A stretch of DNA of 64,000 nucleotides from Companilactobacillus formosensis (GTDB lineage Bacteria; Bacillota; Bacilli; Lactobacillales; Lactobacillaceae): contig NZ_BJDU01000002.1 of the NCBI RefSeq assembly GCF_005405305.1, positions 248,001-312,000 on the forward strand, written 5' to 3'. Shown here one piece after another: positions 8,464-8,491 of the stretch (positions within the stretch are counted from its first letter, which is position 1; each line of letters opens with the position of its first letter). The position numbers were made by a program, and so were the translations under genes. The notes under the pieces were generated by a model. That model was not told the DNA's origin. It did not search any database and saw nothing but the letters and a program-made list of their open reading frames with translations.

Positions 8464-8491
8464 AGGTTACATAATATATATTATACGAAGT
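8464..8491 (-). other. dif: Chromosome dimer resolution site (dif-like, XerC/XerD target)
   Basis: Read on the minus strand, the 28 bases are ACTTCGTATAA (left arm), TATATA (centre) and TTATGTAACCT (right arm). From memory the dif sites of Bacillus subtilis and Staphylococcus aureus have arms ACTTCCTAGAA or ACTTCCTATAA, the same TATATA centre, and right arm TTATGTAAACT. That gives two mismatches in 28 against the latter. The 11-6-11 layout is right for XerC and XerD binding. The site is intergenic, and the main coding direction changes here from plus on the left to minus on the right, as expected where replication forks meet. A xerC gene is at 37820-38719. Confidence 0.82.

What the first reader, a model, noticed from the sequence alone, without database searches (positions are those of the whole stretch)
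8464..8491. A dif site marks the replication terminus in this window
The arms ACTTCGTATAA and TTATGTAACCT around TATATA agree with Firmicute dif except at a few arm positions. Protein genes to the left run mostly on the plus strand and those to the right mostly on the minus strand, as they would where two forks meet. This places the window at the chromosome terminus.
Basis: partly seen in the sequence, partly recalled or inferred. Interest (0 to 1): 0.75.

Follow-up and report, generated by a model that had tools for sequence, protein, structure and literature searches.

The report
Ordinary dif site at chromosome terminus
The 28 bases are a normal dif site, the spot where XerC and XerD recombinases separate joined sister chromosomes before cell division, in a lactic acid bacterium related to Companilactobacillus; it sits where the two replication arms meet, as expected.

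Summary
Window 8464-8491 (minus strand) reads ACTTCGTATAATATATATTATGTAACCT, 3 mismatches from the experimentally confirmed B. subtilis dif. It is the only such site (up to 3 mismatches) in the 2.47 Mb draft genome. In 83 of 151 Lactobacillaceae genomes there is exactly one match each, and none to a reversed control pattern. The 28 bases carry 1.82 bits per position across 30 loci, against 0.37 in the flanks. The local maximum of cumulative GC skew falls at window 9268, about 0.8 kb away; in three same-genus genomes it also lies within 0.8 kb of dif. In two chromosome-scale relatives dif lies 48.4% and 44.9% of the circle from dnaA by the shorter arm. XerC (window 37820-38719), XerD and FtsK with a gamma domain are encoded. 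XerC/XerD/FtsK dimer resolution is the best reading, inferred rather than assayed. One mild peculiarity: an outer XerD-arm base (AACCT, not AAACT) shared by the genus and one neighbouring genus. A new instance of a well-known element, with low novelty. A candidate FtsK-orienting heptamer did not replicate and was dropped.

The parts
8464..8491 (-). dif site, 28 bp: XerC arm ACTTCGTATAA, centre TATATA, XerD arm TTATGTAACCT
8481..8491 (-). XerC-side arm of dif (11 bp, ACTTCGTATAA)
   Evidence: Sequence; arm assignment by analogy with E. coli and B. subtilis dif as printed in PMC3025954
8475..8480 (-). Central hexamer TATATA (strand-exchange region, inferred)
   Evidence: nearly invariant in 30 loci
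8464..8474 (-). XerD-side arm of dif (11 bp, TTATGTAACCT), with the lineage-specific outer C
37820..38719 (-). xerC (299 aa tyrosine recombinase), next to hslV (37283-37807) and hslU (35830-37266), about 29 kb from dif
   Evidence: NCBIfam TIGR02224 352.3 bits, above the 335.15 cut-off
8521..9567 (-). Metallophosphoesterase gene next to dif; this adjacency is kept in several relatives (a neighbour, not part of the mechanism)
9268..9268 (.). Local maximum of cumulative GC skew (replichore switch point)

Best explanation
This is the chromosomal dif site. When an odd number of crossovers joins the two sister chromosomes into a dimer, FtsK at the septum pumps the DNA until the two dif copies meet. 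XerC and XerD bind the 11-bp arms, FtsK-gamma activates XerD, and paired strand exchanges at the borders of the TATATA centre split the dimer into monomers. Shown here: the site, its uniqueness, conservation, position and the presence of all three proteins. Inferred from E. coli and B. subtilis: binding, cleavage and FtsK control.
For: Three mismatches to experimentally confirmed B. subtilis dif. Unique in the genome. One per genome in 83 of 151 family genomes, reversed-pattern control 0. Of 35 of the remaining genomes, about 25 have one clear match to a relaxed pattern. Sharp conservation boundary at the 28 bp. Local GC-skew maximum 0.4-0.8 kb from dif in four genomes of the genus. Roughly opposite dnaA in two chromosome-scale relatives. 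XerC and XerD above equivalog cut-offs, and FtsK-gamma above its Pfam cut-off. dif orientation relative to the metallophosphoesterase gene is conserved in own, G003, G075, G128 and C. futsaii.
Against: No biochemical test. The XerD arm has an unusual outer base (C at position 26). No FtsK-orienting motif could be established. The genome is a draft.
Confidence: 0.97

Rival explanations
1. It is an attachment site or scar of a Xer-exploiting mobile element (IMEX), not the host dif.
For: Such elements exist at Firmicutes-type dif: four IMG/VR contigs carry a full dif and a half-dif 6.6-7.1 kb apart.
Against: No second or half-dif in the window or in the 20 kb sampled at its left edge; no Rep_trans replication protein of the kind those elements carry in the genome; exact 28-mer absent from viral contigs; position and single copy are conserved across relatives.
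Confidence: 0.02
2. It is a chance AT-rich near-palindrome.
For: The core is AT-rich, and short palindromes are frequent in DNA of this composition.
Against: 0 matches in shuffles, 0 reversed-pattern control matches in 151 genomes, and the conservation boundary at the 28 bp.
Confidence: 0.005

Closest known systems
Bacillus subtilis dif (CodV/RipX site)
   Same: 28 bp, identical centre and 25 of 28 bases identical; near the terminus; two recombinases
   Different: Positions 6 (G for C), 9 (T for G) and 26 (C for A)
Lactobacillaceae dif sites, often ACTTNGTATAATATATATTATGTAAACT or ...AAAGT
   Same: Same length, centre, single copy and XerCD-type arms
   Different: Genus g1 (Companilactobacillus-like) and g35 carry AACCT at the outer XerD arm
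difSL/XerS of streptococci and lactococci (PMC5357621)
   Same: Chromosome dimer resolution at the terminus
   Different: 31-bp atypical site and a single recombinase XerS linked to it; here 28 bp with XerC and XerD, and no XerS hit above cut-off

Membership tests
dif (XerCD chromosome dimer resolution site) | 28 bp of two 11-bp arms with imperfect dyad symmetry around a 6-bp centre, matching the known consensus | tested here: met
   3 mismatches to B. subtilis dif, centre identical; 6 of 11 arm positions symmetric
dif (XerCD chromosome dimer resolution site) | Single copy per chromosome | tested here: met
   likewise one each in 83 family genomes
dif (XerCD chromosome dimer resolution site) | Located near the replication terminus / GC-skew switch | tested here: met
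   (own genome is a draft, so its full-circle skew was not computed)
dif (XerCD chromosome dimer resolution site) | Genome encodes XerC, XerD and FtsK with a gamma domain | tested here: met
dif (XerCD chromosome dimer resolution site) | Bound and recombined by XerC/XerD, FtsK-dependent | not testable with these tools
   Needs binding and recombination assays
dif (XerCD chromosome dimer resolution site) | Skewed FtsK-orienting motifs (KOPS/SRS) pointing to the site | tested here: inconclusive
   AGAAGGT looked skewed (56:5) in own and G128 samples, but in lagging-strand ORFs of G003 it was 6:6
difSL/XerS | XerS recombinase encoded beside a 31-bp site | tested here: not met
   None of the four tyrosine recombinases found passes the XerS cut-off of 267 bits

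The most novel reading that the evidence does not exclude
The shared A-to-C change in the outer XerD arm of this genus and g35 reflects a co-evolved XerD contact, making this a lineage-specific dif/XerD specificity variant.
Probability: 0.2. Interest if true: 0.25.

Novelty: new member of a known kind. Interest (0 to 1): 0.12.

Why it matters
It fixes the terminus and the orientation of the replication arms in this window, which explains its gene-strand and skew layout. It adds one well-supported dif to a class already predicted for hundreds of genomes (PMC3025954). It opens no new question by itself.

Tried and rejected
FtsK-orienting motif: AGAAGGT was the most skewed heptamer in own plus G128 samples (56:5) and seemed independent of coding strand (17:2 in lagging ORFs), but an independent test in G003 gave 6:6 in lagging ORFs and rank 2492, so the claim was dropped. 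GAAGAAG and AAGAAGA skews follow coding strand; GAGAAGGG (B. subtilis SRS, from memory) is nearly absent. IMEX origin: no half-dif in the window or the 20 kb sampled at its left edge, no Rep_trans protein. Second dif-like sites in G032, G036 and G019: the G032 one lies between a PTS EIIC gene and a regulator gene, with no phage genes found. My guess from memory that the dif-integrated elements in IMG/VR were E. faecalis prophage 7 was not borne out by the paper (PMC3675006). Rfam and tRNA scans of the window gave nothing.

Full report
Observation. At 8464-8491 the minus strand reads ACTTCGTATAATATATATTATGTAACCT. A search of the window at up to 3 mismatches finds only this place, and 100 dinucleotide shuffles give none. 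In the whole draft genome (2,470,738 bases, 25 contigs; window = contig C2:248001-312000) it is the sole match.

Comparison with known dif. B. subtilis dif is printed as ACTTCCTAGAATATATATTATGTAAACT in PMC3025954; the window site differs at positions 6, 9 and 26, all in the arms. Of 151 family genomes (own included), 83 have exactly one match at up to 3 mismatches, and the reversed control pattern has none. The exact 28-mer occurs in two other same-genus genomes (G043, G128) and in two genomes of g35. Two more same-genus genomes differ by one base (G003, G102) and one by two (G075). Of 35 non-matching genomes tested with a relaxed pattern, about 25 show one clear dif with other arm letters; the others tested have only weak matches or none, and the rest were not tested. 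Over 30 oriented loci the 28 positions average 1.82 bits against 0.37 for 40 bases on each side, and the best flanking column has 1.12 bits. Nearest named relatives of the neighbouring gene are Companilactobacillus futsaii (89%) and an uncultured Lactobacillus MAG; both have a dif beside it.

Terminus. Local cumulative GC skew over C2:235001-322000 peaks at window 9268, about 790 bp from the site; all ten samples to the left back to C2:1 are positive, and both samples to the right of the window are negative. The window itself is negative from about 6-10 kb on except for weak positive values at 16-20 kb. Local maxima in relatives: G043 about 0.45 kb, G128 about 0.8 kb, G003 about 0.5 kb. In G043 the samples keep a weak positive value at 650 kb before turning negative, so that genome's switch is less sharp. 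In G128 (C1, 2,435,232 bases) dif is at 1,020,342 and dnaA at 2,199,443, so the arms are 51.6% and 48.4%; in G003 (C1, 2,506,167 bases) dif 1,995,222 and dnaA 613,880 give 55.1% and 44.9%. These are local maxima plus sampled signs, not a full-circle calculation.

Machinery. XerC is in the window (37820-38719, TIGR02224 above cut-off), beside hslV and hslU. XerD is on the same contig (about C2:326300, TIGR02225 above cut-off), and FtsK with a gamma domain is on C7. PMC3025954 reports that xerC genes mostly lie near dif, which fits. No recombinase passes the XerS cut-off, so this is the two-recombinase system, not difSL/XerS (PMC5357621).

Mechanism. By established knowledge of E. coli and B. 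subtilis (PMC5357621), the site resolves chromosome dimers by FtsK-controlled XerCD recombination. Site, position and proteins are shown here; binding, cleavage and FtsK control are inferred. dif is a recombination site and not a fork-arrest site; [quoted passage not shown]

Surroundings. On the metallophosphoesterase/RecQ side the gene order is kept in G003, G075, G128, C. futsaii and the MAG; the TetR side was not found beside dif in those relatives. dif orientation relative to the metallophosphoesterase gene is the same in own, G003, G075, G128 and C. futsaii.

Verdict. The finding is correct and ordinary.

Noticed in passing
L138, L140, L141, L142 (IMG/VR contigs): A full Firmicutes-type dif and, 6.6-7.1 kb away in the same orientation, a second site with intact XerC arm and centre but divergent XerD arm. 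In L141 they enclose a rolling-circle Rep (PF02486), a weak AAA ATPase match and an 816-aa protein without phage matches: the layout of a filamentous-phage-like element integrated at dif by host XerCD. Host not identified.
   Followed up: partly
7745-8101: Short ORF that by eye joins the N-terminal ~37 residues of an ABC transporter ATPase to a membrane-protein C-terminus, after a TetR gene (no Pfam match): probably a deletion remnant, 360 bp from dif on the side that is not conserved in relatives.
   Followed up: no
L080 1456-2043 (G000:C2 about 221115-221702): A 195-aa tyrosine recombinase with no N-terminal domain, invertase-like or truncated, about 35 kb left of dif.
   Followed up: no
L148 7999-8026; L149 7999-8026; L150 5332-5359: Second dif-like sites (3-5 mismatches to the family consensus) in three other Lactobacillaceae genomes, besides a better match elsewhere; the one in L148 has no evident phage genes around it.
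   Followed up: partly
14859-21106: A run of seven plus-strand genes (MupG, SIS-domain protein, PTS EIIBC, RpiR-type regulator and others) inside the otherwise minus-strand right arm, matching the weak positive GC skew at 16-20 kb: perhaps an inverted or acquired sugar-use cluster.
   Followed up: no
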